A DNA stretch of 64,000 nt, taken from Legionella steigerwaltii. Lineage in GTDB: Bacteria; Pseudomonadota; Gammaproteobacteria; Legionellales; Legionellaceae. Shown here in pieces: positions 21,102 through 59,164 of this stretch; positions within the stretch are counted from its first letter, which is position 1; every line of letters starts with the position of its first letter. A model generated the notes under the pieces. The model had not been told where the DNA came from and made no database searches. It saw nothing but the letters and a program-made list of their open reading frames with translations. The DNA is taken from NCBI RefSeq assembly GCF_001468065.1, contig NZ_LNYZ01000013.1:1-64000 (forward strand). The letters are read 5' to 3'. The position numbers and the translations under genes are program-made.

Positions 21102-22667
21102 TTAGGCTATGGAACCATTGCCTTTAACATTGGCAACTTTATTTAAGTTCGCTTTCCTTTCAGCTTTTTTACCCCGCCAAACAACCGAGAATGCAATAAG
21201 AGAAGCGATAAATAGCAACGCCATCACGCCAGTAAAACCATTCATGAATATTTTATTAAACAATTGATGGGTTAAATCATTTTCTGAAAGTTGTAATGAA
21301 TGAGTAGGATTTGCAATAAAATCTTTCAAACTGGAAATTTGTGTTTCACTTAGTCCATTCGGATTGGACGTTGATAATGAAGATAGAGAATGATTTGTTA
21401 CAAAATTATAAACAACAATAGCAAGAGATAAGCCTATAGAGCCACCAATATTAAATAAGGTAACCATAGATCCTGTCGCAACACTTGCACGTTCAGGGCC
21501 TACTGCGGTTTGAGCCGCAATGATTGAAACGGTGTTCCCCATTGCCCACATGCTTCCAAGACAAATAAATGCAAAAATAATGTAGAATATTGAGGCATTA
21601 CTCGTAAAAAACACTTGTAAGAGGGTAGAGAAACATGCCAAGAATAATCCTAATAAAATAGTATGCACTAGGCCTAGGCTGCTGATTAGTCTTCCTACAA
21701 AAAAAGCAATTAAGAATACTGAGACAGGAATGGCAAATAAAACAAAGCCAGATAATTCCGCTGATTGCTCTTTTATGATTTGTAAATATAGAGGATCAAA
21801 AAATAAAGTAACGGCGCTTAATATCCCCGCTAAAAAGACAAGAATAGCCCCAGATGAGAAGAGTAGATTGGAATAATCTTTAAAATCAATGAGGGGATTA
21901 GGGTGATTATTTTCAGCTTTGACTAATAAAGTGCCTGTAACTAGAGTCACTGCAAAGCAGGTTAAAGTGATTGGTGCGGTCCAGCCATAACTTTGGCTGT
22001 AAATTAAGCCCAGTACGATGCTACCCATAGTGAATGCAAGTAAGAGCATCCCTTTTATATCTAAAGAGACCTGTTGGGAATTTGTCTGCGATTCCGTAAC
22101 CGATTTGAAGCAAAAAACATACCCTAACAAGCAGATAGGAATATTGATGAAGAAAATCCATCTCCACCCCAAATAAGTAACAATAAGACCACCTAAAAGA
22201 GGGCCTAAGGCCAAAGCAATGCCTCCTATACTGCCAAACCAAGCGACCGCTTTACCTCGTTCTTGCTCAGGAAAAAATTGTGGTAGTAATGAAAGACCCA
22301 AGGGAAATATAATTGCAGCACCGACTCCTTGCAATAATCGACCTAAAATTAACCAATGAATATGAGACGAAACACCGGCAATAATCGAGGCAATGACAAA
22401 AATCCCTCCACCCAGATACAGACAACGTCGACGGCCATATAAATCACCAAAACCGCCCATTACAGTAGCTAAAACGCATAATGCTAAGAAGTAAATATTC
22501 ATTATCCATTGCATTGAGACTAGGTTTGCTTGCAATTCGTGTTGTATGGTGGGTAATGCAACATTTACTACGGTATAATCGAGATAACACCCAAAAGAAA
22601 GCAGGGCGATTCCAATAAATGCATACCATTTATACTGATAGTTATCGACTTTACTGATTGTAGACAC
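21102..22667 (-). CDS. DHA2-type MFS multidrug/metabolite exporter
   Basis: A 521-residue major facilitator with about fourteen membrane segments, the EmrB/QacA (DHA2) size class of H+-driven exporters. Family motifs are DYTVVNVALPTIQHEL in segment 1, the motif-A-like GGFGDLYGRRRCLYLGG, GRLLQGVGAAIIFPLGLSLL, and GPLLGGLIVTYLGWRWIFFINIP (motif C and the following block). It lies 146 bases downstream of the TauD-like dioxygenase on the same strand. In the context of the CDPS cluster it is the natural candidate to export the product, but general drug efflux is equally compatible. Confidence 0.9.
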   Translation of the reverse strand: MSTISKVDNYQYKWYAFIGIALLSFGCYLDYTVVNVALPTIQHELQANLVSMQWIMNIYFLALCVLATVMGGFGDLYGRRRCLYLGGGIFVIASIIAGVSSHIHWLILGRLLQGVGAAIIFPLGLSLLPQFFPEQERGKAVAWFGSIGGIALALGPLLGGLIVTYLGWRWIFFINIPICLLGYVFCFKSVTESQTNSQQVSLDIKGMLLLAFTMGSIVLGLIYSQSYGWTAPITLTCFAVTLVTGTLLVKAENNHPNPLIDFKDYSNLLFSSGAILVFLAGILSAVTLFFDPLYLQIIKEQSAELSGFVLFAIPVSVFLIAFFVGRLISSLGLVHTILLGLFLACFSTLLQVFFTSNASIFYIIFAFICLGSMWAMGNTVSIIAAQTAVGPERASVATGSMVTLFNIGGSIGLSLAIVVYNFVTNHSLSSLSTSNPNGLSETQISSLKDFIANPTHSLQLSENDLTHQLFNKIFMNGFTGVMALLFIASLIAFSVVWRGKKAERKANLNKVANVKGNGSIA

Positions 22668-22813
22668 GTTCCATCCTAATGATTATGTTTAAAAAAAAGC
22701 TATAAATGATAATTTTTAGCCAAATATGCGGGGAAATTGTAAAGTAATATCTATTTTAAAACAAATGAAATTTTTAATAGATGAATGTGAACAACATCCT
22801 TGTTGTATCTATT

Positions 22814-23785
22814 TTATCCTGGATATCCTAAAAAACTAGGAAAGGTATGTTTAATTTTAGGGGTATTTAACCAAATCCTTAATAAATGACGAACAGTTTG
22901 ATTTTCAGGATGGTCAAAGGACGTTCTGCCGTGGAGGATTTCTTCATTGTTTATAAAAATTATGCTACCTGGTTTTACTTTTGTTTCAAATGCAATGTCT
23001 TTACGCAGGGAAACCTGATCGAATAGTTCCATGGCTTCAATTTGTTGAGGAGTATAACGGGGTAGCTCAGGGAATTTTTTTTGCGCATCGTTATAAAAAG
23101 GTTGATGATATTGACAACGTAATTCATCCCCATGCATAGCAAAGACAGGACTTAAATCATAAGGTGATGCGCCTGCAGGTTCATTTCCACGTCGATCTGC
23201 ATAAACAGGTTGATATAACACATCAAGAAGATCAGGTCTTATTTTCTGTATTTCATCATGAACAGTTCGAGAACTGGCAAGTATCGTATGGCCACCAACA
23301 TCAGCTGATGCAAGACAATACATCCCAAGAATAGCTCCTGCATCGGTATGCATTGGCAAAGCTTCTTTCACGTAGGGACCACGCGAATCTCTAGTATCTA
23401 GAGTCATTCCTTCGATGCTTTTAACATCAAATATAAGGTCATTATTTTTATTTTGGATTAAGGGGGAACCTAGATGTGAACAGAACGCTAAAAGGAATTT
23501 TTTAATTACATCGGCACTGTATTTATCATTGGCAGAGGGAAATCCAGTTAATGTTATAAATCCTCGAACATGAATTAGGGAGTGCATGATTTCGTCAAAT
23601 AATGGTAGAAGTTCATGGTGCAATGTATTTTTGACAGTACTGTTATCCCATGAGAAATCACTGTGTTCCAAAAGATCCAGAACTTGTATGACTATCTTTT
23701 TTTCATGTATAGAAAGTTCTCGAGAATTAGCAGGGCCTTCCTTAACCTCATTGCTATACCATTTTAACGGATTCATCTGCTTCAT
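22814..23785 (-). CDS. TauD/TfdA-like Fe(II)/2-oxoglutarate dioxygenase
   Basis: A 323-residue oxygenase of the TauD/clavaminate-synthase-like group. The Fe(II) facial triad is visible: HxD in LPMHTDAGAILG and the distal His in NEEILHGRTSF, with the 2-oxoglutarate-binding Arg in RHLLRIWL. It would use 2-oxoglutarate and O2 to hydroxylate or desaturate a small substrate. It is divergent from the cyclodipeptide synthase across 250 bases and upstream of the exporter, so a tailoring role in the same pathway is plausible. A role with an unrelated amino-acid substrate is the alternative. Confidence 0.8.
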   Translation of the reverse strand: MKQMNPLKWYSNEVKEGPANSRELSIHEKKIVIQVLDLLEHSDFSWDNSTVKNTLHHELLPLFDEIMHSLIHVRGFITLTGFPSANDKYSADVIKKFLLAFCSHLGSPLIQNKNNDLIFDVKSIEGMTLDTRDSRGPYVKEALPMHTDAGAILGMYCLASADVGGHTILASSRTVHDEIQKIRPDLLDVLYQPVYADRRGNEPAGASPYDLSPVFAMHGDELRCQYHQPFYNDAQKKFPELPRYTPQQIEAMELFDQVSLRKDIAFETKVKPGSIIFINNEEILHGRTSFDHPENQTVRHLLRIWLNTPKIKHTFPSFLGYPG

Positions 23786-23928
23786 CTTTAATCCTATATG
23801 TTTAGTACTTAAATTAATCGTTTATTTCGAGCTCATTAAAAACAAATTTATTGAATTAGTAAATAGCAAAATGAATATTTTTAATGTTTTGTGAAAAAAA
23901 AATAGTGAAACAGTACTGATAATTGATA

Positions 23929-24001
23929 TATAATCACCCACACTCTCAAATTGTAAGTTTTTTTAGTTATTAAAATTAAAGAGTTAGCAAATTTGAGTGT
24001 G
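23929..24001 (+). promoter_or_regulatory. Promoter and operator-like palindrome before the cyclodipeptide synthase
   Basis: TATAAT at 23929-23934 is a good -10; the -35 is poor, so activation may be needed. Directly downstream, CACACTCTCAAATTG (23939-23953) and CAAATTTGAGTGTG (23988-24001) form an imperfect inverted repeat over the expected transcript start and leader. It could bind a regulator or fold in the 5' leader. Confidence 0.45.
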
Positions 24002-24035
24002 CATAAAAACAACCATTTTCAAGAGGAAGCTATAG

Positions 24036-24782
24036 ATGTTTTCTGTCGAGCACAAAAGTGAGGAACAATGGATCCCATTAAACACGGAGGAGTTAAATAC
24101 ACATAAGGCGTCATTCAGATATTCCGATTTGGATATCGAGAGTGAAAATAAAAAAATGAATTTTGAAGGAAAGAAAGCGCTGTTATTTATTAGTGTCGGA
24201 CAGGCTTATCATGAAAAAGGGAAGTTTTTAGCAACAATTGAATTAGTTAATAAACATCCATTTGCACGCTGTGATATTGTATTAGCTGATACCCTACAAA
24301 AGCATAATCACTACGGCAGATTGGGCGAAGAAAAGGCATATATCTTTGCTAAAGAGGCAGGAGATTTGTGGCTCGAAAGAAGTGCTCTTGCGCTGAGTAA
24401 ATTGAACGTTCCACACAGCATTATTCGTTGGGATGATTTTCTATTTCATGAAGAATATGCAGGGCTGAAAGAGCGTATCGATGCTGCCTATAATGAAAAT
24501 GAAGAATATAGGGCAGCTCTTCACACTAATGTTTTGACGTATATTGATCGTTTAACATTGATTAATCCTTCTACAGATACTAGTACGCTATTTAAGCATG
24601 GATTGAATTATCTCATTGAGGAATGTCCTATTGTAATGCCACTTTGGGCAAAAATGGGCTATGACTACATTATTTATCCTAAACCCTTAACACCTGGTAT
24701 GGCTAAAACTCGGGAATTATTTGTTGCAGATGAATATGGTGATAAATGCCAGTGGATTTATCTACGCTTTAAAAAGAAATAA
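24036..24782 (+). CDS. tRNA-dependent cyclodipeptide synthase (XYP subfamily)
   Basis: A 248-residue CDPS, an enzyme that takes two aminoacyl-tRNAs and makes a cyclic dipeptide (2,5-diketopiperazine). The nucleophilic Ser is in LLFISVGQAYHEKGKF (Ser53), with Gln56 where the NYH subfamily has Asn. VLADTLQKHNHYGR and AGDLWLERSALALSKL are typical of the fold, which resembles class-I tRNA synthetases. The catalytic Tyr192 and Glu196 stand in YLIEECP, and Tyr214-Pro215 in YIIYPKP gives the XYP signature. Length is normal. It is the first of four co-directional genes that could tailor the product. Which amino acids are joined cannot be read reliably. Confidence 0.88.
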   Translation: MFSVEHKSEEQWIPLNTEELNTHKASFRYSDLDIESENKKMNFEGKKALLFISVGQAYHEKGKFLATIELVNKHPFARCDIVLADTLQKHNHYGRLGEEKAYIFAKEAGDLWLERSALALSKLNVPHSIIRWDDFLFHEEYAGLKERIDAAYNENEEYRAALHTNVLTYIDRLTLINPSTDTSTLFKHGLNYLIEECPIVMPLWAKMGYDYIIYPKPLTPGMAKTRELFVADEYGDKCQWIYLRFKKK

Positions 24783-24884
24783 TAAAACATCAGGAGGCAT
24801 CCTTTTTTAGGATGCCAAAATGCTAGGGATGCTGCATTTTTACCAAAAATTGTTTTGTTATAGGCCGTTTATTAAGGAATTTTT

Positions 24885-25880
24885 ATGATAAAAGTTAGCC
24901 AAGTCCCAGTAATTGATGTTTCAGCCTTATACACTGCGCGCTCAGTGCACGATTTGTACGCTTTAGCTCAAAAGTTTAAAGAAGTTTATACCAATATTGG
25001 CTTCGCATATGTTGTTAATCATGGTATTTCCCCACACATGTTTGATACGATTTTTGAACAATCAAGATTGTTTCACCATTTACCTGAAGAAGAAAAATTA
25101 AAAATAAAGCAAAATCAATTTTTTCGCGGATATATGGCGATTCAGGGATCTCGGTTTAAGTTATCGACTTTAGGTGAAACGATTATACCAAATCAAAGCG
25201 CAGCATTCATATTGGGTCATGAAGTACCAGATACAGATCCTGATTATAAATTAGGAGTTAATCTTGCAGGACCTAATCAGTGGCCTTCAGAACATTTATT
25301 ACCGGATTTTAAGAATGTATTACTCCATTATCGTGAAAATGTTTTACTTCTTTTACGTAATTTAGTTCGCGTTTTTTCTCTATCATTGAATCAAGATTAT
25401 TACGCTTTAGATAAATTCTTTATCAAGCCAACTACTTTTTTACGTTTGCAATATTATCCAGCTCAGCCTGAAGTGATCCCTGAGCATCAATATGGAATTG
25501 CACCACATACTGATTGGGGCGCGTTGACTTTGTTAGCTCAAGATTCTGTTGGTGGTTTGCAAGTGAAGCAATGTGATGATACATGGTTGGATGTACCCCC
25601 TTTAGAAGGTGCTTTTATTTTAAATACAGGGGATATGATGCATCGCCTAAGTAATGGCAAATATATTTCAACGCCACATCGTGTAATTAATGTTTCAGGA
25701 AAAGAAAGATATTCTATTCCGCTTTTCTTTGAACCGGATCCTCACGCATTGATAGCACCAGTTAATACTGAGGAAGAGCCAATATTTGAACCTATGGAAT
25801 ACGCTGACTTTTTAATGAAGCAGATCACCAATAATTACAACATAGGTGCCAAGGATAAAGAAGCATTAGCGGATGCATAG
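24885..25880 (+). CDS. Isopenicillin-N-synthase-like Fe(II)/2OG oxygenase
   Basis: A 331-residue oxygenase of the IPNS/DIOX family. The N-terminal region (VPVIDVSALY, IGFAYVVNHGI) and the double-stranded helix core are both present. Iron ligands are in PHTDWGALTLLAQD (HxD) and in STPHRVIN (distal His), and the 2-oxoglutarate or substrate RxS motif is ERYSIPLFFEPD. It lies 102 bases after the cyclodipeptide synthase. It could hydroxylate, desaturate or cyclise the diketopiperazine or a side-chain precursor; this is inference from position. Plant- and fungus-like members of this family act in secondary metabolism. Confidence 0.85.
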   Translation: MIKVSQVPVIDVSALYTARSVHDLYALAQKFKEVYTNIGFAYVVNHGISPHMFDTIFEQSRLFHHLPEEEKLKIKQNQFFRGYMAIQGSRFKLSTLGETIIPNQSAAFILGHEVPDTDPDYKLGVNLAGPNQWPSEHLLPDFKNVLLHYRENVLLLLRNLVRVFSLSLNQDYYALDKFFIKPTTFLRLQYYPAQPEVIPEHQYGIAPHTDWGALTLLAQDSVGGLQVKQCDDTWLDVPPLEGAFILNTGDMMHRLSNGKYISTPHRVINVSGKERYSIPLFFEPDPHALIAPVNTEEEPIFEPMEYADFLMKQITNNYNIGAKDKEALADA

Positions 25881-25945
25881 CATCAAAATATTGAAAACGC
25901 TTCAATGAAACACGGAAGTTATTTATTCAATTTTTTGGGGTTAAT

Positions 25946-27283
25946 ATGTCAAGTATATTTTTAGGTCAAAATGATCAAAAAGAGTTGTGCGATCGTTTTA
26001 ACGATTTGATTCAATATGTAAAAGAGAATTTTGCATTTTATAAAAACACCTACAAGAATGTTCCAGCTTCAATTAATGACTTAAGTGATTTGCGCCATTT
26101 TCCTGCTCTTGATAAAAAATATCCAGGAATTTCTGTCCTTGTTGACGAAGCACTCGCCAAAAGACCCCCCGCTTATTTTGAAACAAGCGGTACTTCAGGT
26201 AATCCATTTCCTGTTATTCCCGATTTAGGACCAGAACGCAGTCGTGAGTTCGCGAATTTTATTTATGAATGGCTTGGCTTGGATAAAACTGAAGTTAAAA
26301 GTGCAGTGATTGCATTACCCTTTGAGATGAATCCTATTGGCTTAAAATATTTTGCTGCGTTAAACCAATTAGGGATTATGGCTATTCCAACGGGTGTAAA
26401 AACTCATCTTTGCTCACCCAGAAAGATGTTGGAAATTTTTGCCCGTATGAAGCCTGAGTTACTGATTGCTCGTCCATTGGAAACGCTACGTTATGCAGAG
26501 GCAATGCGTGCTCAAGGCATTGATCCTGCAAAATCTTCAATTAAAAAAATTATTTTAACTGGGGAAATTATCTCCAAAGCTAAATTTGCTCGTATCAGTA
26601 AGATGTACGGGGGAGCAACGGTTCATGGAGTTTATGGTTTAACCGAACTCGATAGTGGTGGTTTAGTATCATGTAGTAATCATCAGTATCATTTACCTTC
26701 AAAACCTTACTTGATTATTGAATTATTAGAAGATGATTTTAATACACCAATAAAAAATGAGGGGGAATTAGGTAATATTGTTTTAACCAACACTCACAAA
26801 AATCATATGCCACTGTTACGTTATAAAACTGGTGATTTTGGTAAATTACAACATGGCTGTGGCTGTGAATACTCAACCCCAGTGATCAATGCGATGGGAC
26901 GAGCTGCGGATTTAATTCAGTGCAAAACCACAGGAAACTCGGCGTTTCCAATCGAAATTGAAAATATTTTATTTCAAAATGATGAAATTGCTTGTGATTA
27001 CCAAATTATCACAAGAAATGGTGCCATTGAGTTAAGAATTGAATTATTAAACAATTTAGATTCAGCACAAATTTCAGCGTTAATTCAACAACTAAAAACA
27101 GATATTATGCATCAATTGTCTGTTGCTGTTGAACAGATCCACGTTTTTATGCCAGGTCAATTAGCTAATAAACTAGGGATTGCAAAAACTAAGGCAGGCA
27201 CTCTTTATGTGTTAGATGGTATGAGTGATGAAGAAGCTAAAGAACGGCTGGAGTTAAATTATTGTTGTGAAGAAGGATTATAA
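25946..27283 (+). CDS. PaaK-like adenylate-forming enzyme
   Basis: A 445-residue member of the ANL superfamily closest in pattern to phenylacetate-CoA ligase. The phosphate loop is YFETSGTSGNP, the A5-like motif is GVYGLTELDSGG, the Asp motif is LRYKTGDFGKL and GRAADLIQ marks the hinge. A small C-terminal domain follows. It would activate a carboxylate with ATP, then transfer it to CoA, another thiol or an amine. No carrier-protein domain is attached or encoded nearby. It lies 65 bases after the oxygenase and 4 before the aminotransferase-fold gene, so the genes are probably co-transcribed. The substrate is unknown. Confidence 0.8.
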   Translation: MSSIFLGQNDQKELCDRFNDLIQYVKENFAFYKNTYKNVPASINDLSDLRHFPALDKKYPGISVLVDEALAKRPPAYFETSGTSGNPFPVIPDLGPERSREFANFIYEWLGLDKTEVKSAVIALPFEMNPIGLKYFAALNQLGIMAIPTGVKTHLCSPRKMLEIFARMKPELLIARPLETLRYAEAMRAQGIDPAKSSIKKIILTGEIISKAKFARISKMYGGATVHGVYGLTELDSGGLVSCSNHQYHLPSKPYLIIELLEDDFNTPIKNEGELGNIVLTNTHKNHMPLLRYKTGDFGKLQHGCGCEYSTPVINAMGRAADLIQCKTTGNSAFPIEIENILFQNDEIACDYQIITRNGAIELRIELLNNLDSAQISALIQQLKTDIMHQLSVAVEQIHVFMPGQLANKLGIAKTKAGTLYVLDGMSDEEAKERLELNYCCEEGL

Positions 27284-27287
27284 GATA

Positions 27288-28391
27288 ATGATAAATTGGG
27301 AAAAATACAGAGAATTGTTTCCTGTTGTAAATCAGCAAACCTATTTTATGACAGCTGGGGGAGGGGCTTTATCAAAAAAAGCACTCCAAGCGGTCACCGA
27401 TAGATACCAATCATTAGCATTGAATGGAGGGAGAATTTTTGGTGACAACATTCAGTTGATGGAAACATGTCGAGAAAAAATTGCTCGGTTAATTAATGCA
27501 GAAAAAGAGCATATTGCCTTTATTCCCAGTGTTTCATTCGGTATGAATGCATTAGCTCATTCTCTTCCTCGCAAAAATTCTGTTTTGCTTGTAAAAAATG
27601 ATTTTTCCTCATCCATTTTACCCTGGGAAAATGCTGGACATTCAGTAAAATGGGTTGACTCAGCTGCAGATCTTGCTGCACGAGTAGTTTCTGCGCAACA
27701 AGAAGATGAAAAAATTTCTTCGATTGTCGCCAGCTCTGTTCATTATGCCAATGGGTACAAGCTTAATTTAGAAGAAATTAAGGAATTAAAAAAAGAGGCT
27801 CATTTTATTGTGAATGGAACTCAAGGAATTGGTGCATTCCCTATCGATGTTAAAAAGCAAGGAATTGATGCATTAGTTTGCTCTTGCTATAAATGGATGT
27901 GTTGTGGTGAAGGAATAGCATTTATCTATATTCATCCAGACTTATTCAAACAATTGACTCCTGCTTTAATCGGATGGAGGAGTGTGCAGTCTGCGATGAA
28001 CTTTGATGGAAGTTGCCAATTTTATCAATCTGCTCGTGTTTTTGAATTAGGCTGGGATAATATGACTATTTTTTCCGGTTTCAATGCGGCACTTGATTTG
28101 ATTGAAGAAATTGGCATTTCAAACATTGAAGAGCGAATTATGTCTCTTACTGATTATTTAGTAGAACGATTGCACCAATTAAATGTTCCCGTACTTTCAA
28201 ATACTGAAAAGCAACATCGATCGGGTATTGTACAATTAGGGCCTTTCAACGAATTAGATAAGATCATGAAACACCTGGAAAGCCATAATGTCTGGGTAAC
28301 TCAGCGTGACGGCGGTATTAGAATTTCCTTGCATTACTACAACAATGAAACGGATATTGATAATTTATTAAATGCACTTCAGGAGTTATAG
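27288..28391 (+). CDS. Class-V aminotransferase / cysteine-desulfurase-fold PLP protein
   Basis: About 367 residues with the class-V PLP fold: an N-terminal AGGGALSK, a middle HYANG, and CSCYKWMCCGEGIAFIYI, whose Lys is the expected PLP Schiff-base residue. The position that normally holds Asp contacting the pyridine nitrogen reads Asn176 in FIVNGTQGIGAFPID. That is unusual and could change the reaction. The reaction could be epimerisation, beta-lyase or desulfurase chemistry or transamination. I prefer the ATG at MINWEKY (GAAGG upstream) to the GTG 21 bases earlier. It is the last gene of the CDPS arm, 4 bases after the adenylating enzyme. Confidence 0.8.
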   Translation: MINWEKYRELFPVVNQQTYFMTAGGGALSKKALQAVTDRYQSLALNGGRIFGDNIQLMETCREKIARLINAEKEHIAFIPSVSFGMNALAHSLPRKNSVLLVKNDFSSSILPWENAGHSVKWVDSAADLAARVVSAQQEDEKISSIVASSVHYANGYKLNLEEIKELKKEAHFIVNGTQGIGAFPIDVKKQGIDALVCSCYKWMCCGEGIAFIYIHPDLFKQLTPALIGWRSVQSAMNFDGSCQFYQSARVFELGWDNMTIFSGFNAALDLIEEIGISNIEERIMSLTDYLVERLHQLNVPVLSNTEKQHRSGIVQLGPFNELDKIMKHLESHNVWVTQRDGGIRISLHYYNNETDIDNLLNALQEL

Positions 28392-28465: not shown

Positions 28466-30235
28466 TTAAGCAGGAGAATTCGGGTTAGCTTGCGCTTCTG
28501 GATCATCCACATTTTCAAATTGTTTTTTATCTTCGTTATATTTCGTCTTAAAGAATACGGTATGATTGCGCTCTTCATAGAAAGTTGGATTATTTTGGAA
28601 TTCATTACTTGCTTTCTCAAGCGTTTGTAAGAACTCATTGACTGTCTTCATCGTTCTTTTGCTCAGGATCTTTTTCGCATTAGAGTCTAGCTGTAAAGAG
28701 ACAAGTTGATCTTCAACCTGAGATTTCATTTGTCCAATATCATGCCAACTATCCAAATTCTTTAGAGAAAAGCTCATAATGCCATCTAGGAAAGCCTCTC
28801 TTGTCTTTAGGCACCTAATTCTTTCTTCATTTTTGGACTTTTTCTTAGGATTTGTTTCATGAACATTTCGTTCCTCAGCTTGCTTAATTTTTTCCTGGCC
28901 TAAAGCAATTTTTTCTTCCACTTTCTTTTGGGCTATGAGAAAGTCAATTTGCGGAGATGTTGTAATTTGAGATTTAGAATTTTTAGTGTGATACTCGATA
29001 AAGTCAGGTTTAGGAGTATCAGGTGTAGAAGCTAAGCTTTTCCATTGCTTATAGACCTTCTCAGAGAATAGCTTCGCCCCTTCATCGTTTTGTTTTGCGC
29101 CAATCCAATTTCCTTGGTGATTGGGATCAGGTTTTAAAAGAATGAGATCATTAGTGATGCGCATATATAATTTATCTTTACTATGTCTTCTAAACCAATC
29201 TTCCGCTTCTTTTGAGAAAAGTTTACCCCAAGTAAACCCGCTTTTGCCGTATGCTTTTGATTCTGCTAAACCGGATTTATTCAAATCTAATTCTTCTTCA
29301 ATAAAGTTTTTCGTTTTCCAGGCCCTTCTTGAGCCCATAAACCCAACAACTTTTCGAAAATTATCGTCATCGTGACCTTGCACACGTGTAAAAATATGTT
29401 TTGTATCAGGTAACTTTTCAATTTGTTTCAGCAGTTTTCTTCCTTTTAATGGGTCTGTAAAAGTTTCTGGGATCACCACACCTAATCCAGAGGTTCGAAA
29501 AGCTGCTTCACGTACACAGTCTTTTATGCCATCCATAGATTTTTTAGATTTGCTGTATAAATCTTCAATACCAGGATATCCTTGATTGTTGGCTAATTGG
29601 ATGACTAGTTTACGCATTTGTGATACTTCACGAACAATTCCTCCATCCGCCGCGATAACATGATTTCCACTCATATCACTATAATCAGATGCTAAAAATT
29701 CTTTGGCTTTTTCCACTGCCGCTTGAGCAGCAAAGGATTTTCCAGAGGCTGATGGGCCACCAACGATTACCACGGGACGTTCTGACCACTTTGGTCCTGC
29801 AAAATGTGTGGTTGATTTGATGACGACCGCATTCCTAAAGTCTTTGCTATTCATTTCTTCGTCTAATGCGAGTTTGTATAATTCAACGCCTTGTTTACCA
29901 AGAAATGTTTCCATATCTGTGGTGGCTTCTTCAGGGTTGGTTTCACGTTTTTTGGGGTCACCGCTATATCGGGGGAATGGATGTTTCTGAATGTATTCTA
30001 TCAATTTCTTTCTAAAAAACTGAGGGTCAGAAGAAGCGACACTAGGATCTATATTTTGATCATATTTTCCTGCATAAGATTTTGCTAGGGCAGCGCGCGT
30101 TCTTTCATAGTCCTCTATACCTTTATATAACTGTTCTTCACCTTCCTGACTGATACAAAATGGACCATGATTCTCATAGTTATCGATTTGTTGCTTTAAA
30201 GAAACTACAATTGATGCATCGATTGGTGTGTGCAT
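28466..30235 (-). CDS. Large zeta-toxin-like P-loop protein, candidate Dot/Icm effector
   Basis: A 589-residue soluble protein. A Walker A motif GGPSASGKS (Lys166) lies in VVIVGGPSASGKSFAAQAA and is followed by HVIAADGGIVREV. This order resembles zeta-toxin / UDP-N-acetylglucosamine kinase folds, although the protein is about twice the usual zeta length. Long charged helices with coiled-coil character occupy about residues 430-560. The C-terminal 30 residues are polar and rich in Glu, Asp, Asn and small residues, loosely like Dot/Icm secretion signals but without a clear E-block. There is no signal peptide. A small XRE-like gene lies upstream on the same strand. The function is not established. 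Confidence 0.6.
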   Translation of the reverse strand: MHTPIDASIVVSLKQQIDNYENHGPFCISQEGEEQLYKGIEDYERTRAALAKSYAGKYDQNIDPSVASSDPQFFRKKLIEYIQKHPFPRYSGDPKKRETNPEEATTDMETFLGKQGVELYKLALDEEMNSKDFRNAVVIKSTTHFAGPKWSERPVVIVGGPSASGKSFAAQAAVEKAKEFLASDYSDMSGNHVIAADGGIVREVSQMRKLVIQLANNQGYPGIEDLYSKSKKSMDGIKDCVREAAFRTSGLGVVIPETFTDPLKGRKLLKQIEKLPDTKHIFTRVQGHDDDNFRKVVGFMGSRRAWKTKNFIEEELDLNKSGLAESKAYGKSGFTWGKLFSKEAEDWFRRHSKDKLYMRITNDLILLKPDPNHQGNWIGAKQNDEGAKLFSEKVYKQWKSLASTPDTPKPDFIEYHTKNSKSQITTSPQIDFLIAQKKVEEKIALGQEKIKQAEERNVHETNPKKKSKNEERIRCLKTREAFLDGIMSFSLKNLDSWHDIGQMKSQVEDQLVSLQLDSNAKKILSKRTMKTVNEFLQTLEKASNEFQNNPTFYEERNHTVFFKTKYNEDKKQFENVDDPEAQANPNSPA

Positions 30236-52818: not shown

Positions 52819-52988
52819 TAGTTTATTGATTAGATTTTAGTCACTTATGAAATTTACAAAGAGTGCGTAGGCTCTTTGTGAATTTTATCTTTTTTCTTTT
52901 TCTATACATAGAAATTACTGTTATACTCCTAATATTGCCTTGGATTTTTGCAGAGTGTTTCATTTCTTATAAGGTTACATTTGACGTG

Positions 52989-53567
52989 ATGAATAAAGAT
53001 GATTTCAGAGAAGAACATAATGACGCAATCCTTAAAGCATTGGATTATGCGATTCAAAATGGGCCCTGGGATAAGTCGAATTTTCTACGGTCAATTGGTA
53101 ATCGTTTAATCGGAATTCGCGATAATTTTTGCAAAAAAATTAATGCGCGCAGTCAAGCACAAATTCAATCAGATGCTAATTTAGCAAATCGTCTAGCTTT
53201 GAGAGGGAATCAGCAAGAAGTTTTTGTTTCTTTATATACTTCGGATGGTTCTAATATTCAATCTTGGGAAAGGATAATCATTAATTTGCCACGTCAAATG
53301 ATTTCTCGTCCAATCTATGGAAATGAAGATCAGGTGAGAGAATTAATCAAATCAAAAGAAAACAAGCAGAATGAGGCTTACGTAGGCATCTATATCAATA
53401 ATACCGATGTTATTCACCTGGCTCCAGATAAAATCTTATATGATAGGTTAGGAAATCCTTTATTAACGTTAAAAGATAGATCTTTAGACTTAGAGAATGT
53501 TACTCGTTTTGTTCACATCAGTGGTATTTATAAATATTCACGTGGTCGCTTGACTAAAGAATCGTGA
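52989..53567 (+). CDS. icmQ: Dot/Icm protein IcmQ
   Basis: About 192 residues from MNKDDF, the length of L. pneumophila IcmQ; the open frame extends 42 codons upstream through a spurious hydrophobic stretch. IcmQ binds membranes and NAD and can form pores, held in check by IcmR or a FIR protein. The recognisable blocks are NGPWDKSNFLRSIGNRL, SLYTSDGSNIQSWERIIINL, PRQMISRPIYG and LTLKDRSLDLENVTRFVH. It is strongly conserved while its upstream partner is not, consistent with a fast-evolving partner for a stable target. Confidence 0.93.
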   Translation: MNKDDFREEHNDAILKALDYAIQNGPWDKSNFLRSIGNRLIGIRDNFCKKINARSQAQIQSDANLANRLALRGNQQEVFVSLYTSDGSNIQSWERIIINLPRQMISRPIYGNEDQVRELIKSKENKQNEAYVGIYINNTDVIHLAPDKILYDRLGNPLLTLKDRSLDLENVTRFVHISGIYKYSRGRLTKES

Positions 53568-53605
53568 GTTTTATCATATCTCTTTGTTGTGATGTAAAGC
53601 ACAGA

Positions 53606-53651
53606 TATACTCGCGAATCTCTCGCAAATTTATACTAGGGCAGTATATACT
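53606..53651 (+). promoter_or_regulatory. Three TATACT hexamers before icmP
   Basis: TATACT occurs at 53606-53611, 53631-53636 and 53646-53651, all on the coding strand within 80 bases of the icmP start. Any one could be the -10 of the icmPO transcript; the same hexamer lies before icmT. Confidence 0.5.
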
Positions 53652-53684
53652 TATAAAGAAATAAACTTTTTGAAGTAATCACTA

Positions 53685-54815
53685 ATGGCACAACAACCGC
53701 AACAACAGGGTCAAGATAGTGGCATGGGTCCAATATGGGTCATGGTGCTGGTGTTTATTACTGTGTTTCTTATTTGGAAAATGGGACATCAGTATATTGT
53801 GATGGTTGTTTTTCAAATTAATATTTTGCAAGCAAAACTTGTCAACCTTTTTGTTCATAGTGATCAGCTCGCAAGCTTGATTCAGATTATGCAAACAATA
53901 GATCCTAATGCAGTGGATTGGAATCAATTGTTAGAAACAACGCGTGCTGTTGGCGACTTCATGCGTTATCCAGTAGTTATTGTCCTCCTTTTTTTAGCAG
54001 GGTTTCTGTATCAATCAAATATCACTTTAAAATTCCGTAAAATTTACGATATGAAAAAGCTGCGTGAGCAAGAACAATTTAACTGGCCTGCAATCATGCC
54101 TATAGTAAAAGAAGATTTAGCAGCTCAGGATATAAATAAAGGCCCATGGTCTATGGCTTTGACCCCAATGGAATTTGCACGTAAATACAATTTATTAAAA
54201 AAAGAAGATGTTTTATTAGACAATCCTGTACCTGGCCAAGAGATGACGGCGGGAGTTAGAAGAGGCGATGCAAAACGAGTTTTTACTCTGCAATTAGGCC
54301 CTTATTGGGATGGTTTTGAGCATTGTTCGCCACAAGCTTATGCCTTAGCTGCTGTTTTTATGGCACGTATTAATCGGGATAGAGATGCTGCAAACAATAT
54401 TTTAGCTGTGTTAGATAGAACTTATGTTTCAGGAAAACCTGATTATTCTGTTGCTAGACCAGTAATAGAAAAATATAAAAATACAGAAATTATCCAGGAA
54501 GTTGTTTCAAAACACGCCTATACTTTAAGTGTAATGGCATCATTACTTGAGAAGGCTCGGGATGATGGGGTTGTTCCGAGTTCTGAGTTTTTATGGTTAA
54601 GACCTGTTGATAGGCGTTTATGGTATATGCTCAATTGTGTTGGTAGACAAACTCCCTTTTCAGAGGTTGCAGGCCCTTTCTCTCATTGGAAAGCTGAGAA
54701 AGAAATGGGACGACGTTCTTTAGTGCCTATGGTAGATGAGGCGATTAAAGCTTTGGAAATTGCCATAAAAGAAGTTAAGTTAACACCCCGACAAATGCAG
54801 GAGTTAGAGCCATGA
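53685..54815 (+). CDS. icmP: Dot/Icm coupling-complex protein IcmP/DotM
   Basis: A 376-residue inner-membrane protein with segments near residues 14-34 and 84-107 and a cytoplasmic C-terminal domain. With IcmO/DotL it forms the type IV coupling complex that receives effectors; the cytoplasmic domain of DotM is known to recognise acidic Glu-rich signals. Gln/Pro-rich residues open the protein, and the domain shows GPWSMALTPMEFARKYNLL and FSEVAGPFSHWKAEKEMGRR. Length matches the family. It overlaps icmO by four bases (ATGA), so they are co-translated. Confidence 0.95.
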   Translation: MAQQPQQQGQDSGMGPIWVMVLVFITVFLIWKMGHQYIVMVVFQINILQAKLVNLFVHSDQLASLIQIMQTIDPNAVDWNQLLETTRAVGDFMRYPVVIVLLFLAGFLYQSNITLKFRKIYDMKKLREQEQFNWPAIMPIVKEDLAAQDINKGPWSMALTPMEFARKYNLLKKEDVLLDNPVPGQEMTAGVRRGDAKRVFTLQLGPYWDGFEHCSPQAYALAAVFMARINRDRDAANNILAVLDRTYVSGKPDYSVARPVIEKYKNTEIIQEVVSKHAYTLSVMASLLEKARDDGVVPSSEFLWLRPVDRRLWYMLNCVGRQTPFSEVAGPFSHWKAEKEMGRRSLVPMVDEAIKALEIAIKEVKLTPRQMQELEP

Positions 54816-57154
54816 TGCGCGGTATTGAATCACGTCATGAGTTAGATCCCACCCTCCTACTTAGGGACACCCGGACTTTGGGGCAGCGGGTGGCGGATTT
54901 TTTTGCAGATCCTACGAACATTTCAATTGTTCTGTTTACTTTGTCAGCCATGGCGTATTATTTCTCAGAAGTAGCTACTCTTTTGATGCTTATTGGAGGA
55001 GGATGTTTTCTTTATAGCTACACACGAAAACAAAAGCTACCTTTCCGTCTTCCTCAAATTTCTCGAGTAAAAGATTATAATGATATGAAGCCGGGTGTGA
55101 ACAAGCCCAATATGGCCCGAGGAATAGCGTTTTTTGGTAACGATCGCAAAACGGGGCATGAATTATGGTTTGCTAATGATGATATGCGTACCCATGCGTT
55201 AATTTTCGGCTCCACCGGTAGCGGTAAAACAGAATGTTTGGTCTCTCTTGCTTTTAATGCTTTGGTACAAGGTAGTGGTTTTATTTATGTCGATGGTAAA
55301 GGGGATAACTCACTCTATGCTAAAGTTTTTTCTATGGTCCGCAGCATGGGGCGTGAAGATGATTTACTTCTGATTAACTTTATGACTGGTGCGCGAGATA
55401 TTATTGGTCCACAAGAAAAAAGATTGTCTAATACGTTTAACCCTTTCTCTCAAGGGTCTTCTAGTATGTTGACCCAACTTGTAGTGAGTTTGATGGGCGA
55501 TTCAAAAGGCGGCGGAGACGGTGATATGTGGAAAGGCCGTGCTATCGCTTTCGTCGAAGCGTTAATGCGTCTTCTGGTTTATATGCGTGATGAAGGTGCA
55601 ATTCTTTTAGATGCTGATACCATCCGTAACTACTTTGATTTAACCCGATTAGAAACAATCGTCGTAGATAAAATATTTCCACGCGATAATCAGGAAAGTG
55701 TTAATATTGAGCAGATTCCAAAATTGGTTACCGACCCTTTACGTAACTATTTAGGTACTTTGCCAGGTTATAATAAAGAGAAAAAAGGAAAACAAGTATC
55801 ACAGGTTCTAGAGCAGCACGGTTTTATTACCATGCAGTTGGTAAGAGCGTTTTCATCCCTGGCTGATACTTATGGGCATATTGTTCGTACCAATCTGGCC
55901 GAGGTAGATTTTAAGGACGTGGTGTTGAATCGGAGAATTCTTGTTGTACTACTGCCCGCTTTGGAAAAATCTCCAGATGAGTTATCTAACTTAGGTAAAA
56001 TTATTGTCTCTTCATTGAAAGCGATGATGGCAGCAGGTTTGGGAGAAGATGTCGAAGGGGACTATCGAGATGTAATCTTGAGAAAACCAACCAATGCACC
56101 TACTCCTTATATGTGTATCCTTGATGAGTATGGATATTATGCTGTTCAAGGGTTTGCAGTGGTTCCTGCACAAGCGCGTTCTCTAGGATTCTCTGCGATT
56201 TTCGCAGGACAAGATTTACCTGCATTCCAAAAAGCATCCAAAGAAGAAGCGGCATCTATCGGTGCAAATACAAACATTAAAATATGTATGAAATTGGAAG
56301 ACCCGACCGAAACCTGGGATTTCTTCACTAAAACAGCAGGCGAGGCTTATGTCACCAAGGTTGATTCATTTCAAGCCAAAGATACCAGCATGGCTAATAC
56401 GTATATGGACAGTAAAAGTTCTTCATTTGAAAAGAGAGCTCGTGTTGATCTATTGGATTTAAAGGAACAAACAGAAGGTGAAGCGCATATATTTTTCAAG
56501 TCAAAAATTGTACGTGCACGAATGTTTTATGCGAATCCTAAACCTGTAAAGCAGTTAAAATTAAATCAATTTTTAAAGGTAGAAGCTCCTCCAGACGATT
56601 ATTTAATGAGATTACAAAAGCAATTAGTCTCATTCCAATCCATTTTGGAAAGTGGCGATTTGTCAATTAATAAGACAGTTGAAAATGAAGAAATTACCCT
56701 TATTTCCAAGCTGTTACGCGAATCACCCATAGAAGAGCCCATAGAGCGGGGCGTGTCTGCTTTAATTGCATTTCATGGTCATAATGAACCTGAACCAGTT
56801 GAGGATTTGATTGAAGAAGAAGTAGAAGGTGCACTAACAATATTTAGTAATTTGCGAGAAAATCCAAATGGCCCGCCAATTTTAGCGAGTGATAAGGCTA
56901 CATTCTCTGAAGCGTTACTACCCATTAATGAAACACGTAATCAGATGATGAATATTGAGCGTTTGGCTGGAGCTAAAGATAAATATGCTGGTACGGTTGC
57001 GAATGAGCTGGTTAAAGATTTCCAATTGGCAACGAGTTATCCGCCAGAAGAAAGGGATGTTATTGCTCCAGATGAGCTAACTGACATGGTCAGGACTTTA
57101 TCAGAAAAAATTGCTACAGAACGTGAGAATGCAAGTAAAAAAACTGAAGAATAG
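54812..57154 (+). CDS. icmO: Dot/Icm coupling ATPase IcmO/DotL
   Basis: A 780-residue type IV coupling protein (VirD4/TraG-like) that brings effectors to the Dot/Icm channel. Two membrane segments lie at about 37-73. Walker A is FGSTGSGKTE (Lys139), and Walker B is CILDEYGYYAVQG. The C-terminal tail beyond about 600 is acidic and helical, the part that binds IcmSW, LvgA and DotN in L. pneumophila. The start MMRGIESRHELDP is strongly conserved. It is translationally coupled to icmP. A 501-base gap follows before icmN. Confidence 0.97.
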   Translation: MMRGIESRHELDPTLLLRDTRTLGQRVADFFADPTNISIVLFTLSAMAYYFSEVATLLMLIGGGCFLYSYTRKQKLPFRLPQISRVKDYNDMKPGVNKPNMARGIAFFGNDRKTGHELWFANDDMRTHALIFGSTGSGKTECLVSLAFNALVQGSGFIYVDGKGDNSLYAKVFSMVRSMGREDDLLLINFMTGARDIIGPQEKRLSNTFNPFSQGSSSMLTQLVVSLMGDSKGGGDGDMWKGRAIAFVEALMRLLVYMRDEGAILLDADTIRNYFDLTRLETIVVDKIFPRDNQESVNIEQIPKLVTDPLRNYLGTLPGYNKEKKGKQVSQVLEQHGFITMQLVRAFSSLADTYGHIVRTNLAEVDFKDVVLNRRILVVLLPALEKSPDELSNLGKIIVSSLKAMMAAGLGEDVEGDYRDVILRKPTNAPTPYMCILDEYGYYAVQGFAVVPAQARSLGFSAIFAGQDLPAFQKASKEEAASIGANTNIKICMKLEDPTETWDFFTKTAGEAYVTKVDSFQAKDTSMANTYMDSKSSSFEKRARVDLLDLKEQTEGEAHIFFKSKIVRARMFYANPKPVKQLKLNQFLKVEAPPDDYLMRLQKQLVSFQSILESGDLSINKTVENEEITLISKLLRESPIEEPIERGVSALIAFHGHNEPEPVEDLIEEEVEGALTIFSNLRENPNGPPILASDKATFSEALLPINETRNQMMNIERLAGAKDKYAGTVANELVKDFQLATSYPPEERDVIAPDELTDMVRTLSEKIATERENASKKTEE

Positions 57155-57655
57155 TTAAGCGAAATACAACTAAGGCTCAGCTCAGAATAATTCATTTTTC
57201 TTTTCATAATTATTTTTCGATACTAGAAAATTGAGTTAGGTGAAGCCGTTCATACCTTTTCGTATGAGTTATTGAGTTAATTTCTTATCTATGAGCATAT
57301 GCGATTTGGCTATTAGGCTTCTTTCGAAATTCTACTTGCAGCAAACTGCTTCGTCGGTGCGGTGTTCGAAACCTCATATACTCGCGTGTATACTACTCCC
57401 ATGCTTTGCTTTTCCTTGCATTTTGCTCGCTACTGCGCGTTTCAAAATGAGTCTATTTTCTTTTTCATTGTTGCGAAAAAATAATCCTTGGCGATTTGTT
57501 TTTATTCAGAAAAATGTAAAGAAATAAATATATTTTTAAAAAAATAGCTATTTTATTGAATTCATTGTAACGTAATGATTTGTATGTTTTTCTCAAAGAT
57601 GGAACACACAACAGAGCTACAGTCAGAATCATTTATTGAGATATGAGGATAGTGA
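57155..57655. other. Long intergenic region between icmO and icmN
   Basis: This 501-base gap interrupts the Dot/Icm run. Its middle (about 57310-57450) is less AT-rich than its flanks, contains GCTTCTTTCGAAATTCTA and TCGCTACTGCGCGTTTCAAA, and looks like a dispersed repeat or decayed element; a 78-codon frame through it is not convincing. Two TATACT hexamers (57377-57382, 57389-57394) lie inside. Nearer icmN, TTGAAT (57556-57561) could belong to an icmN promoter. GAGGA at 57645 is the icmN ribosome-binding site. Confidence 0.45.
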
Positions 57656-58213
57656 GTGAGATCAGTACGTATTAATCTAATTCCGGCTGTTGGATTGGTT
57701 GCCATATTAATGTTAACTGCCTGCAAGGGTGACTATTGGGCGCTAGAAAAAGATGAACCTAAATATCCATGTAAGGTTCTGGGCGCCTGTGATGCTACTA
57801 TCATGAAGCTGGCTAAAAGACTCAATAGAAAAGGGGTAAAAGTAATTACCATTGGTCAGGATTATATGATTAGTATTCCTGCCAGCTACTTATTTGAGCC
57901 AGAAACACCACGTCTAAAATGGAAATCTTATCCTTTGTTAAATGAAATTGTTGTGTTCCTGAAACAATTTCGTAAAATTGCAATTAATATAGCCAGTTAC
58001 AGCAACAAATATGTATCACCACAAAGAGAGCATGCATTAACTTTAGCCCGGTCGAGAGTTGTTAGTGACTATCTTTGGTCTCAAGGGGTAGATAGTCGTT
58101 TTATCTTTACACAGGGGTTAGGTAGTGATAAACCTATTATTTCATTCACTCAAGGCGGTGATAATTCAGCAAATGCTAGGGTAGAAATAACATTTAGGCG
58201 AGCCGTGGCGTAG
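57656..58213 (+). CDS. icmN: Dot/Icm lipoprotein IcmN/DotK
   Basis: A 185-residue outer-membrane lipoprotein with an OmpA-like domain, part of the outer-membrane core complex with DotC, DotD and DotH. It starts with GTG, supported by GAGGA 6 bases upstream. The signal ends in a lipobox LMLTAC (Cys about 23). The OmpA-like peptidoglycan-binding half has IASYSNKYVSPQREHALTLARSRVVSDYLWSQGVDS and ARVEITFRR. It is 8 bases before icmM and begins the icmN-M-L-K-E-G run. Confidence 0.93.
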   Translation: MRSVRINLIPAVGLVAILMLTACKGDYWALEKDEPKYPCKVLGACDATIMKLAKRLNRKGVKVITIGQDYMISIPASYLFEPETPRLKWKSYPLLNEIVVFLKQFRKIAINIASYSNKYVSPQREHALTLARSRVVSDYLWSQGVDSRFIFTQGLGSDKPIISFTQGGDNSANARVEITFRRAVA

Positions 58214-58221
58214 GGGAAATA

Positions 58222-58506
58222 ATGAGTCGTGAAACATGGGAATTGATAAAAAGCAGTAAGAATTTCTACGTTAACTCATACAGACGCGGGTTGATTACAT
58301 TGATTCTTTCCCTGATATTGAATTGCATTTTTGGAGTTTTAATCGCTTATATTCATTTAACAGAGCCTGAACGAGATTTTTATGCAACGAGTGGTATAGC
58401 ACCACCCATTCAATTGCAGCCTCTTTCGGCTCCAAATTATTCATCGAACGCGTTACTTCCTCCTGATCCGCCTGCGGAGAATGAGGATAAATTGATACCG
58501 CAATAA
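58222..58506 (+). CDS. icmM: Dot/Icm inner-membrane protein IcmM/DotJ
   Basis: A 94-residue protein with one membrane segment (about 21-45) and a short Pro-rich periplasmic tail. It is a paralogue of the N-terminal part of the next gene product, IcmL/DotI, with which it forms an inner-membrane complex related to conjugation TraM. Both share the pattern of a short cytoplasmic start, membrane segment and FYATSG / YFATSI after it. The short length is normal for DotJ. Confidence 0.93.
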   Translation: MSRETWELIKSSKNFYVNSYRRGLITLILSLILNCIFGVLIAYIHLTEPERDFYATSGIAPPIQLQPLSAPNYSSNALLPPDPPAENEDKLIPQ

Positions 58507-58525
58507 GTAATAAATAGAGGATATT

Positions 58526-59164
58526 ATGGCTGAAGATTCCTTGACAGTTGTAGCATTAAGAAACAAATTTTATAAAGACAGCCAACGTAAGGTAATACTT
58601 GCGTTGTTAATTGCTCTTCTTGTCAATATTGTTTTAGCTGCGCTATTGGTGTACATGATTACTCATCCACCAGCCCCTAAATATTTTGCGACCAGCATAA
58701 ACGGTCGCATCACTCCGCTTTTCCCTTTAAATGAGCCAAACCAGTCGGATTCTGCTGTATTGCAATGGGCGAATCAGGCTGCTATTGCTGCATTTACTTA
58801 TAATTTTGTTAACTATAGAGACGAACTACAAGCTTCATCCGGGTTTTTTACCCCTGAAGGTTGGGATCAATTTCTAAGTGCATTACAACAATCAAATAAC
58901 TTAGATGCAGTAAAGGCCAAAAAACTAATTGTTTCTGCTGTGGCAACACGAGCTCCCATTATTTTGCAAAAAGGCGTGTTGAATGGAAACTTTTCATGGC
59001 GAGTACAAATGCCTATATTGGTAACCTATCAGAGCGCCAGTGAATTTACTCAACAAAATAATGTGGTTACCATGTTAATTACCCGTGTTTCTACTTTGAA
59101 TTCGCCTAGAGGAATAGGTATATCGCAATTTGTTGTAGGACCTGCCACAGGTGGAGTGTCTTAA
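58526..59164 (+). CDS. icmL: Dot/Icm inner-membrane protein IcmL/DotI
   Basis: A 212-residue protein with a cytoplasmic N-terminus, a membrane segment at about 25-45 and a periplasmic VirB8-like domain. It belongs to the IcmL/TraM family; the start ALRNKFYKDSQRKVILALL and the periplasmic AIAAFTYNFVNYRDELQASSGFFTPEGW are diagnostic. It is thought to be a structural part of the channel inner-membrane complex. Its stop overlaps the icmK start by one base. Confidence 0.95.
   Translation: MAEDSLTVVALRNKFYKDSQRKVILALLIALLVNIVLAALLVYMITHPPAPKYFATSINGRITPLFPLNEPNQSDSAVLQWANQAAIAAFTYNFVNYRDELQASSGFFTPEGWDQFLSALQQSNNLDAVKAKKLIVSAVATRAPIILQKGVLNGNFSWRVQMPILVTYQSASEFTQQNNVVTMLITRVSTLNSPRGIGISQFVVGPATGGVS

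What the first reader, a model, noticed from the sequence alone, without database searches (positions are those of the whole stretch)
21102..28391. Candidate cyclodipeptide natural-product cluster in a Legionella chromosome
A CDPS is followed on the same strand by an IPNS-like 2OG oxygenase, a PaaK-like adenylating enzyme and a class-V aminotransferase-fold protein with short gaps (102, 65 and 4 bases). Divergent from it are a TauD-like dioxygenase and a DHA2 exporter. Seen directly: motifs and gene order. Known: CDPS enzymes make diketopiperazines that neighbouring oxygenases and transferases tailor. Inferred: the six genes form one pathway whose product is exported. I do not recognise this enzyme set from any described pathway; the pairing of a CDPS with a PaaK-like and a class-V PLP enzyme is unusual.
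Basis: partly seen in the sequence, partly recalled or inferred. Interest (0 to 1): 0.85.

Follow-up and report, generated by a model that had tools for sequence, protein, structure and literature searches.

The report
Mobile Legionella cyclodipeptide gene cluster
A set of neighbouring Legionella genes looks like a small assembly line that makes a ring-shaped dipeptide, modifies it and exports it; the same genes recur together in several Legionella species and appear to have moved between them, but their product is unknown.

Summary
In detail: MFS, TauD, CDPS, IPNS-like 2OG oxygenase, PaaK-like ligase and class-V PLP genes lie at 21102-28391. CDPS, 2OG, PaaK-like and PLP orthologs occur in the same 12 of 143 genomes of the family. 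All six genes stand in the same arrangement at another site in a distant relative, G127, and cluster and marker trees conflict, so the set moves horizontally. TauD is optional (intact in 8 of 12); the exporter comes in two types. The CDPS has Phe at the P1 position that the literature ties to cyclo(Gly-Glu), in 12 of 12 orthologs. I propose that the PaaK-like enzyme activates that scaffold's only free carboxylate, with PLP-dependent processing, oxidation and export. The PLP enzyme has Asn where relatives read here have Asp. Product, step order and function are inferred. My searches found no paper on this enzyme set; CDPS neighbourhoods with acyl-CoA ligase, 2OG dioxygenase or PLP enzyme were noted in 2010. 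New variant of a known kind.

The parts
21102..22667 (-). DHA2-type MFS exporter, 521 aa (accessory; likely exporter or self-protection)
   Evidence: in the cluster in the window clade (6 genomes) and G127; at the rimK-zwf site in G019, G040, G041 without an intact core
22814..23785 (-). TauD-type Fe(II)/2OG dioxygenase, 323 aa (optional tailoring); H146-x-D148, H285
   Evidence: FrbJ best solved relative; intact in 8 of 12 cluster genomes
24036..24782 (+). XYP-type cyclodipeptide synthase, 248 aa; S53, Y192, E196, Y214-P215; P1 residue F51, predicted product cyclo(Gly-Glu)
24796..24816 (+). hairpin GGCATCC-loop-GGATGCC between CDPS and 2OG genes; role unknown (perhaps transcript processing or attenuation)
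   Evidence: single match to the pattern in this genome; a hairpin in 7 of the 9 CDPS-2OG gaps read (not in G019, G040), with a different sequence in G127
24885..25880 (+). IPNS-like Fe(II)/2OG oxygenase, 331 aa; H208-x-D210, H265, R275-x-S277
   Evidence: (ortholog in 12 of 12 cluster genomes; unlinked in G043)
25946..27283 (+). PaaK-like adenylate-forming ligase, 445 aa; T80-P87 ATP motif, D297, K416
27288..28391 (+). class-V PLP enzyme, 367 aa from ATG (GTG start at 27267 possible); K202, F106, R345, and N176 where relatives read here have Asp

Best explanation
This is a horizontally mobile, CDPS-dependent natural-product cluster confined, as far as sampled, to Legionellaceae. Shown here: gene content, co-occurrence, different genomic sites, conserved catalytic residues. 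Inferred, with rough likelihoods: (1) the CDPS joins Gly-tRNA and Glu-tRNA into cyclo(Gly-Glu) (about 0.8). (2) The PaaK-like enzyme uses ATP to activate the side-chain carboxylate, the only free carboxylate of that scaffold, as an acyl-adenylate or CoA ester (about 0.5). (3) The class-V PLP enzyme supplies or processes the partner, an amino acid-derived nitrogen or sulfur nucleophile, or acts on an amino acid joined to the scaffold; a diketopiperazine has no free amine for PLP, so it should not act on the bare scaffold (about 0.5). (4) The 2OG oxygenase hydroxylates or desaturates the scaffold, and TauD adds an optional second oxidation (about 0.6). (5) An MFS protein exports the product (about 0.75).
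For: The same 12 of 143 genomes carry orthologs of all four enzymes, with a wide score gap to the next hits: CDPS at least 334 bits against 155, PaaK-like 12 at E<=1e-40, 2OG at least 470 against 165, PLP at least 523 against 162, a broken second copy in G040 set apart. Linked CDPS+PaaK+PLP in 12 of 12, with 2OG linked in 11 of 12. All six genes in the same arrangement at another site in G127; trees conflict both ways (p-AU 1.9e-5 and 1.6e-4). Pairwise identities of the four proteins correlate with each other at 0.86-0.98 and with Ffh at 0.51-0.74. F51 in 12 of 12 window-type CDPSs against Pro in 18 and Thr in 1 of the 19 second-type Legionellaceae CDPS genes whose loci were fetched; Phe at that place in CDPS 87 of L. 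lansingensis, which makes 100% cGE, while Leu goes with cAE (PMC5816076; Nbra L32, PMC13062777). One of two MFS types was found in 12 of 12 cluster genomes.
Against: No product, transcript or enzyme assay was seen. The Glu-binding (P2/C2) motif was not tested because the published motifs are logos. The PaaK-like and PLP substrates are inferred by elimination; the PaaK-like enzyme could act on another acid. The DHA2 MFS is not tied strictly to the core. The P1 rule predicts only the main product (the authors' own caveat). The clades for the AU tests were chosen after the identities were seen, and only 1 of 9 inner branches of the Ffh tree is starred.
Confidence: 0.6

Rival explanations
1. The PaaK-like and PLP enzymes build a separate acyl group (a kynureninase-like PLP step giving an acid that the PaaK-like enzyme activates), which is then attached to a hydroxyl that the 2OG oxygenase puts on the diketopiperazine; the Glu carboxylate stays free.
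For: PaaK-like relatives with solved structures include 6siw and AjiA1 (that these are natural-product ligases is recalled); kynureninase models match the PLP enzyme weakly, and its Phe106 sits where desulfurases have a His (the likeness to kynureninase at this place is recalled).
Against: In the window span there is no further ORF of at least 90 aa except one antisense to TauD (23586-23894), and of 10 neighbours of other clusters scanned none looks like a precursor supplier or acyltransferase; other neighbours were read by eye only. Kynureninase cut-off far from met (64 against 246 bits).
Confidence: 0.2
2. The PLP enzyme is a sulfur donor (cystine/cysteine C-S lyase type): with the PaaK-like adenylate it makes a side-chain thiocarboxylate of the cyclodipeptide.
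For: Profile search places cysteine desulfurases and the cystine C-S lyase C-DES (1elq, 1n2t; matched over nearly the whole length) nearest among solved structures.
Against: The segment holding the Cys in 5b7s aligns to a gap here, Phe106 stands where the desulfurases have a His, Asn176 where they have Asp, and the SufS cut-off is not met (117.6 against 475.1).
Confidence: 0.12
3. The CDPS makes another cyclodipeptide than cyclo(Gly-Glu), so the carboxylate-activation logic fails.
For: Only one pocket residue was checked; G127 could not be named, so identity of any of the 12 with CDPS 87 was not tested.
Against: F51 is invariant in 12 of 12 and absent from the 19 second-type CDPSs checked; nearest solved relative is the cAE enzyme of Nocardia brasiliensis, E about 1e-51.
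Confidence: 0.15
4. The genes are neighbours by chance.
For: The DHA2 MFS stands at this site in G041 with only TauD and PLP scraps, and in G019 with no trace of the core.
Against: Identical 12-of-143 distribution of four enzymes, the same six-gene arrangement at another site, remnants of the same genes at the rimK-zwf site in G040 and G041.
Confidence: 0.02

Closest known systems
cGE specificity group of XYP CDPSs (CDPS 87, Legionella lansingensis; PMC5816076, section 10 and passages seen)
   Same: XYP signature, catalytic residues, Phe at the second P1 position, Legionella host
   Different: There only the CDPS was tested, in E. coli; the parts I saw describe no tailoring genes. Sequence identity with the window CDPS not tested (supplements not available).
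Bicyclomycin cluster bcm (PMC6934819, passages seen)
   Same: CDPS plus Fe(II)/2OG dioxygenases plus MFS transporter
   Different: bcm has five 2OG enzymes and a P450, starts from cyclo(Ile-Leu), and lists no adenylating ligase or PLP enzyme
CDPS neighbourhoods with acyl-CoA ligase, 2OG dioxygenase or SelA-like PLP enzyme (PMC2922099, section 5 read)
   Same: Individual enzyme classes beside a CDPS
   Different: Actinomycete, Burkholderia/Pseudomonas and Desulfovibrio/Rickettsiella cases; the classes are not described together and no Legionella operon is described in that section
PaaK / phenylacetate-CoA ligases and PaaK-like ligases (4r1l, 6siw, AjiA1)
   Same: Sequence family, ATP motif
   Different: Far below the PaaK cut-off (100.5 against 646.3 bits)
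Class-V PLP enzymes: SufS, C-DES, kynureninase, PvdN
   Same: Aminotran_5 family, PLP Lys202, C-terminal Arg345
   Different: Asn176 for Asp, no desulfurase Cys segment

Membership tests
Cyclodipeptide synthase, XYP subfamily | Catalytic Ser, Tyr, Glu, Tyr (Nbra S34, Y172, E176, Y194) | tested here: met
   S53, Y192, E196, Y214
Cyclodipeptide synthase, XYP subfamily | X40-Y202-P203 signature instead of N-Y-H | tested here: met
   Q56, Y214, P215, counted from S53 = S37
Cyclodipeptide synthase, XYP subfamily | Family model cut-offs | tested here: met
   Pfam 28.2 against 27; TIGR04539 48.1 against 45
cGE specificity group | Phe at second P1 position (AlbC 35) | tested here: met
   F51 in 12 of 12 orthologs
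cGE specificity group | Glu-type P2 motif | not tested
   Published as logos in the text held; supplement look-ups not available
cGE specificity group | Makes cyclo(Gly-Glu) | not testable with these tools
   Needs an assay
Phenylacetate-CoA ligase PaaK | NCBIfam TIGR02155 cut-off | tested here: not met
   100.5 against 646.3 bits
PaaK-like ligase superfamily | ATP motif, Asp and C-terminal Lys | tested here: met
   TSGTSGNP 80-87, D297, K416 invariant in the 8-row alignment; G104, outside it, has Ser for Asn86; roles recalled
Cysteine desulfurase (SufS type) | Model cut-off and catalytic Cys segment | tested here: not met
   117.6 against 475.1 bits; Cys segment of 5b7s aligned to a gap
Class-V aminotransferase fold | Pfam cut-off and PLP Lys | tested here: met
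   132.6 against 21.5 bits; K202 in 12 of 12
Class-V aminotransferase fold | Asp contacting the PLP ring nitrogen | tested here: not met
   Asn176 in 12 of 12; Asp in the 3 plasmid homologs read and the 5 PDB chains shown; the Asp's role is recalled
Bicyclomycin-type pathway | P450 and several 2OG enzymes beside the CDPS | tested here: not met
   No P450 among the window's cluster ORFs or the 10 neighbours of other clusters scanned; one IPNS-like 2OG enzyme and an optional TauD

The most novel reading that the evidence does not exclude
The cluster would be the first CDPS pathway known to me in which the cyclodipeptide's own side-chain carboxylate is activated by a stand-alone adenylating enzyme and converted with a class-V PLP enzyme that works with Asn in place of the usual ring-nitrogen Asp, giving a new class of side-chain-conjugated diketopiperazine spread by horizontal transfer among intracellular bacteria.
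Probability: 0.3. Interest if true: 0.8.

Novelty: new variant of a known kind. Interest (0 to 1): 0.6.

Why it matters
It links an already described but orphan CDPS activity (cyclo(Gly-Glu) from a Legionella enzyme) to a defined, conserved set of tailoring genes, so a predicted scaffold and several enzyme functions can be tested. It is a small-molecule pathway without PKS or NRPS genes in a genus known mostly for protein effectors. Its transfer, decay and exporter replacement suggest that the product is under changing selection. The PLP enzyme with Asn at a usually Asp position is an enzymology question of its own.

Tried and rejected
Chance neighbourhood: rejected by the 12-of-143 distribution and the second site. 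SufS-type desulfurase and true PaaK: cut-offs not met. Promoter and terminator scan: 21 promoter-like and 3 terminator-like sites against 29.5 and 5.6 expected from shuffles, so uninformative. AlphaFold models of the PLP and PaaK-like proteins were poor (mean pLDDT 57 and 47, six-row alignments), so no fold search was run. Plasmid searches: PLP relatives in 224 records, at most 30.2% identity in the 25 rows shown; PaaK relatives in 230 records, at most 27.9% in the 15 rows shown; CDPS relatives in 4 records, all Endohaliclona. The three PLP neighbourhoods opened have no gene annotated as CDPS or PaaK, in an incomplete gene table. Class and phylum samples: no genome besides the window's own among 369 with the PaaK ortholog (E<=1e-30) or among 398 with such a CDPS (E<=1e-15); thin samples of large groups. 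A small carrier protein was not found: the intergenic ORFs of 30-89 aa are at most 45 aa.
Full report
What is there. The six ORFs stand at the stated coordinates with the stated gaps. The PLP gene can start at GTG 27267 or ATG 27288; orthologs start at the matching MIN. Catalytic residues are present: CDPS S53, Y192, E196, Y214; 2OG H208-x-D210, H265, R275-x-S277; TauD H146-x-D148 and H285; PaaK-like T80-P87, D297, K416; PLP K202 and R345 (roles of the non-CDPS residues are recalled). Against two relatives per gene, dN/dS is 0.05-0.09 for the six genes, 0.27-0.28 for the neighbour at 28466-30235, and 0.02-0.06 for rimK and zwf.

The genome and its kin. The named records hit by the CDPS are L. 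parisiensis, L. bozemanae, L. steelei, Legionella sp. PATHC038 and sp. PC1000 (5 loci); their contig lengths equal those of G017, G004, G040, G025 and G019. It has two further CDPS-type proteins: a 36% identical one at C13:231871 and a 519-aa one at C3:93283. PMC5816076 reports Legionellaceae CDPSs with an additional C-terminal domain, predicted to make cyclo(Ala-Ala) (passage); the 519-aa protein may be one of these.

Distribution. Among 143 genomes of the family (one search was run on the order, also 143 genomes), window-type CDPS (at least 334 bits, next 155), PaaK-like (12 at E<=1e-40), 2OG (at least 470 bits, next 165) and PLP orthologs (at least 523 bits, next 162) lie in the same 12 genomes. 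Set apart: a broken second PaaK/PLP copy in G040, a second weaker 2OG relative in G104 (165 bits) and a partial one in G083 (117 bits). Relatedness means these are not independent events, so no probability is given.

Arrangements. (a) Six genomes, window included: all six genes between rimK and zwf. (b) G127, another genus-level group: all six genes in the same arrangement at another site, beside an NMT1/THI5-like gene. (c) G019 and G040: CDPS-2OG-PaaK-PLP at a third site beside metK/ahcY-like genes (names recalled), with the DHA2 MFS at the rimK-zwf site; G019 has an intact TauD elsewhere (69%). (d) G043: CDPS-PaaK-PLP, with 2OG and a different MFS together on another contig. (e) G080 and G104: CDPS-PaaK-PLP-2OG followed by that different MFS (the three are 68-80% identical; no BLAST match to the window's DHA2 at E<=1e-3). 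So linked CDPS+PaaK+PLP in 12 of 12, with 2OG linked in 11 of 12; intact TauD in 8 of 12, fragments in G040, none at E<=1e-20 in G043, G080, G104; one of two MFS types found in 12 of 12, though no genome-wide MFS search was run.

Gain and loss. In G009 and G031 rimK and zwf are neighbours with no cluster. At the rimK-zwf site G040 keeps the MFS, with broken TauD, PaaK and PLP and no CDPS or 2OG; G041 keeps the MFS with TauD and PLP scraps; G019 has the MFS and no trace of the core. These copies are described only. The four-protein tree puts G127 with the window clade (100/100) and rejects grouping the window clade with G019, G040 and G043 against G127, G080 and G104 (p-AU 1.9e-5). The Ffh tree rejects joining G127 to the six (p-AU 1.6e-4). 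Caveats: the clades were chosen after identities were seen, 1 of 9 inner branches of the Ffh tree is starred, and G080 is a long branch there. Ffh identity to the window is 82% for G127 and 95-97% for G019/G040, while the four cluster proteins are 72-80% and 64-71%. The set, or its carriers, therefore moved horizontally; direction is not known.

Scaffold. PMC5816076 (section 10 and passages) reports that L. lansingensis CDPS 87 makes only cGE, and that the second P1 residue is Ala for cLE, Leu for cAE, and Phe in CDPS 87. PMC13062777 (passages) shows the equivalent Nbra L32 controlling P1 size; Nbra itself makes cAE and no cGE. The window residue is F51, and it is Phe in 12 of 12 window-type genes. 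Among 19 distinct second-type genes whose loci were fetched (more are listed without loci) it is Pro in 18 and Thr in 1; the 12 C-terminally extended hits were not aligned at this site, and L032 gave no match. Nbra is the closest solved relative. Hence cyclo(Gly-Glu), about 0.8.

Tailoring logic (inference). Cyclo(Gly-Glu) has one carboxylate and no amine. An adenylating enzyme that is always present points to that carboxylate; an always-present PLP enzyme points to an amino-acid partner or an amino acid after attachment. In the window span no other ORF of at least 90 aa occurs except one antisense to TauD, intergenic ORFs of 30-89 aa reach at most 45 aa, and 10 neighbours of other clusters scanned with Pfam show no carrier protein, acyltransferase or P450. 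The PLP enzyme is not a SufS-type desulfurase (no Cys segment; Phe106). Its N176 replaces the Asp seen in the 5 PDB chains shown and the 3 plasmid homologs read. That this Asp contacts the PLP ring nitrogen is recalled, and the effect on chemistry is open.

Literature. Searches: (listings capped at 10-25 papers; one search was not accepted). None of the listings or passages I saw describes this enzyme set. PMC2922099 (section 5; passages) noted CDPS neighbourhoods with an acyl-CoA ligase and methyltransferase, with 2OG dioxygenases, and with a SelA-like PLP enzyme, and suggested a role for cyclodipeptides in intracellular bacteria. PMC5126622 (Legionella BGC survey with L. parisiensis; term search of the main text) has no hit for CDPS or diketopiperazine. 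PMC5767969 (passages) counts Legionella among genera with CDPS clusters. PMC11828895 (passages) reports a putative CDPS on an L. lytica plasmid. PMC6934819 (passages) describes bicyclomycin. PMC11610984 (passages) names ligases among CDPS tailoring enzymes without detail there. PMC12945691 (passages) added nothing on this set. Subscription papers are mostly not held, so absence is weak evidence.

Verdict. A real, conserved, mobile CDPS cluster with a predicted scaffold and unknown product: a new variant of a known kind.

Noticed in passing
28466-30235 (-): 589-aa fast-evolving protein with weak P-loop hits (dN/dS 0.27-0.28) in the same rimK-zwf insertion; still present in G019, G040 and G041, and not found beside the clusters at other sites.
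   Followed up: partly
24796-24816: Hairpin between CDPS and 2OG genes, a single pattern match in the genome; a hairpin with another sequence stands in the same gap in G127.
   Followed up: partly
own genome C13:231871 and C3:93283 (L002, L003): Two further CDPS-type proteins in the same genome, one with a long C-terminal extension; their neighbourhoods were fetched (L041, L044) but not studied.
   Followed up: no
L080:14896-15708: A CDPS relative (30.6% identity) annotated as hypothetical beside renA-F on the renieramycin plasmid of Candidatus Endohaliclona renieramycinifaciens.
   Followed up: partly
L127:8780-11167 and L128:8431-10614: Decayed copies of the cluster at the rimK-zwf site: TauD, PaaK and PLP broken and CDPS and 2OG missing in G040; TauD and PLP scraps only in G041; the MFS stays intact in both.
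   Followed up: yes
L038:5943-7016: A protein with Beta-lactamase2 match (161 bits) near the PLP end of the G043 cluster; not seen beside the others.
   Followed up: no
52863-63462: Genes that look like part of the Dot/Icm secretion system (names recalled, not tested).
   Followed up: no
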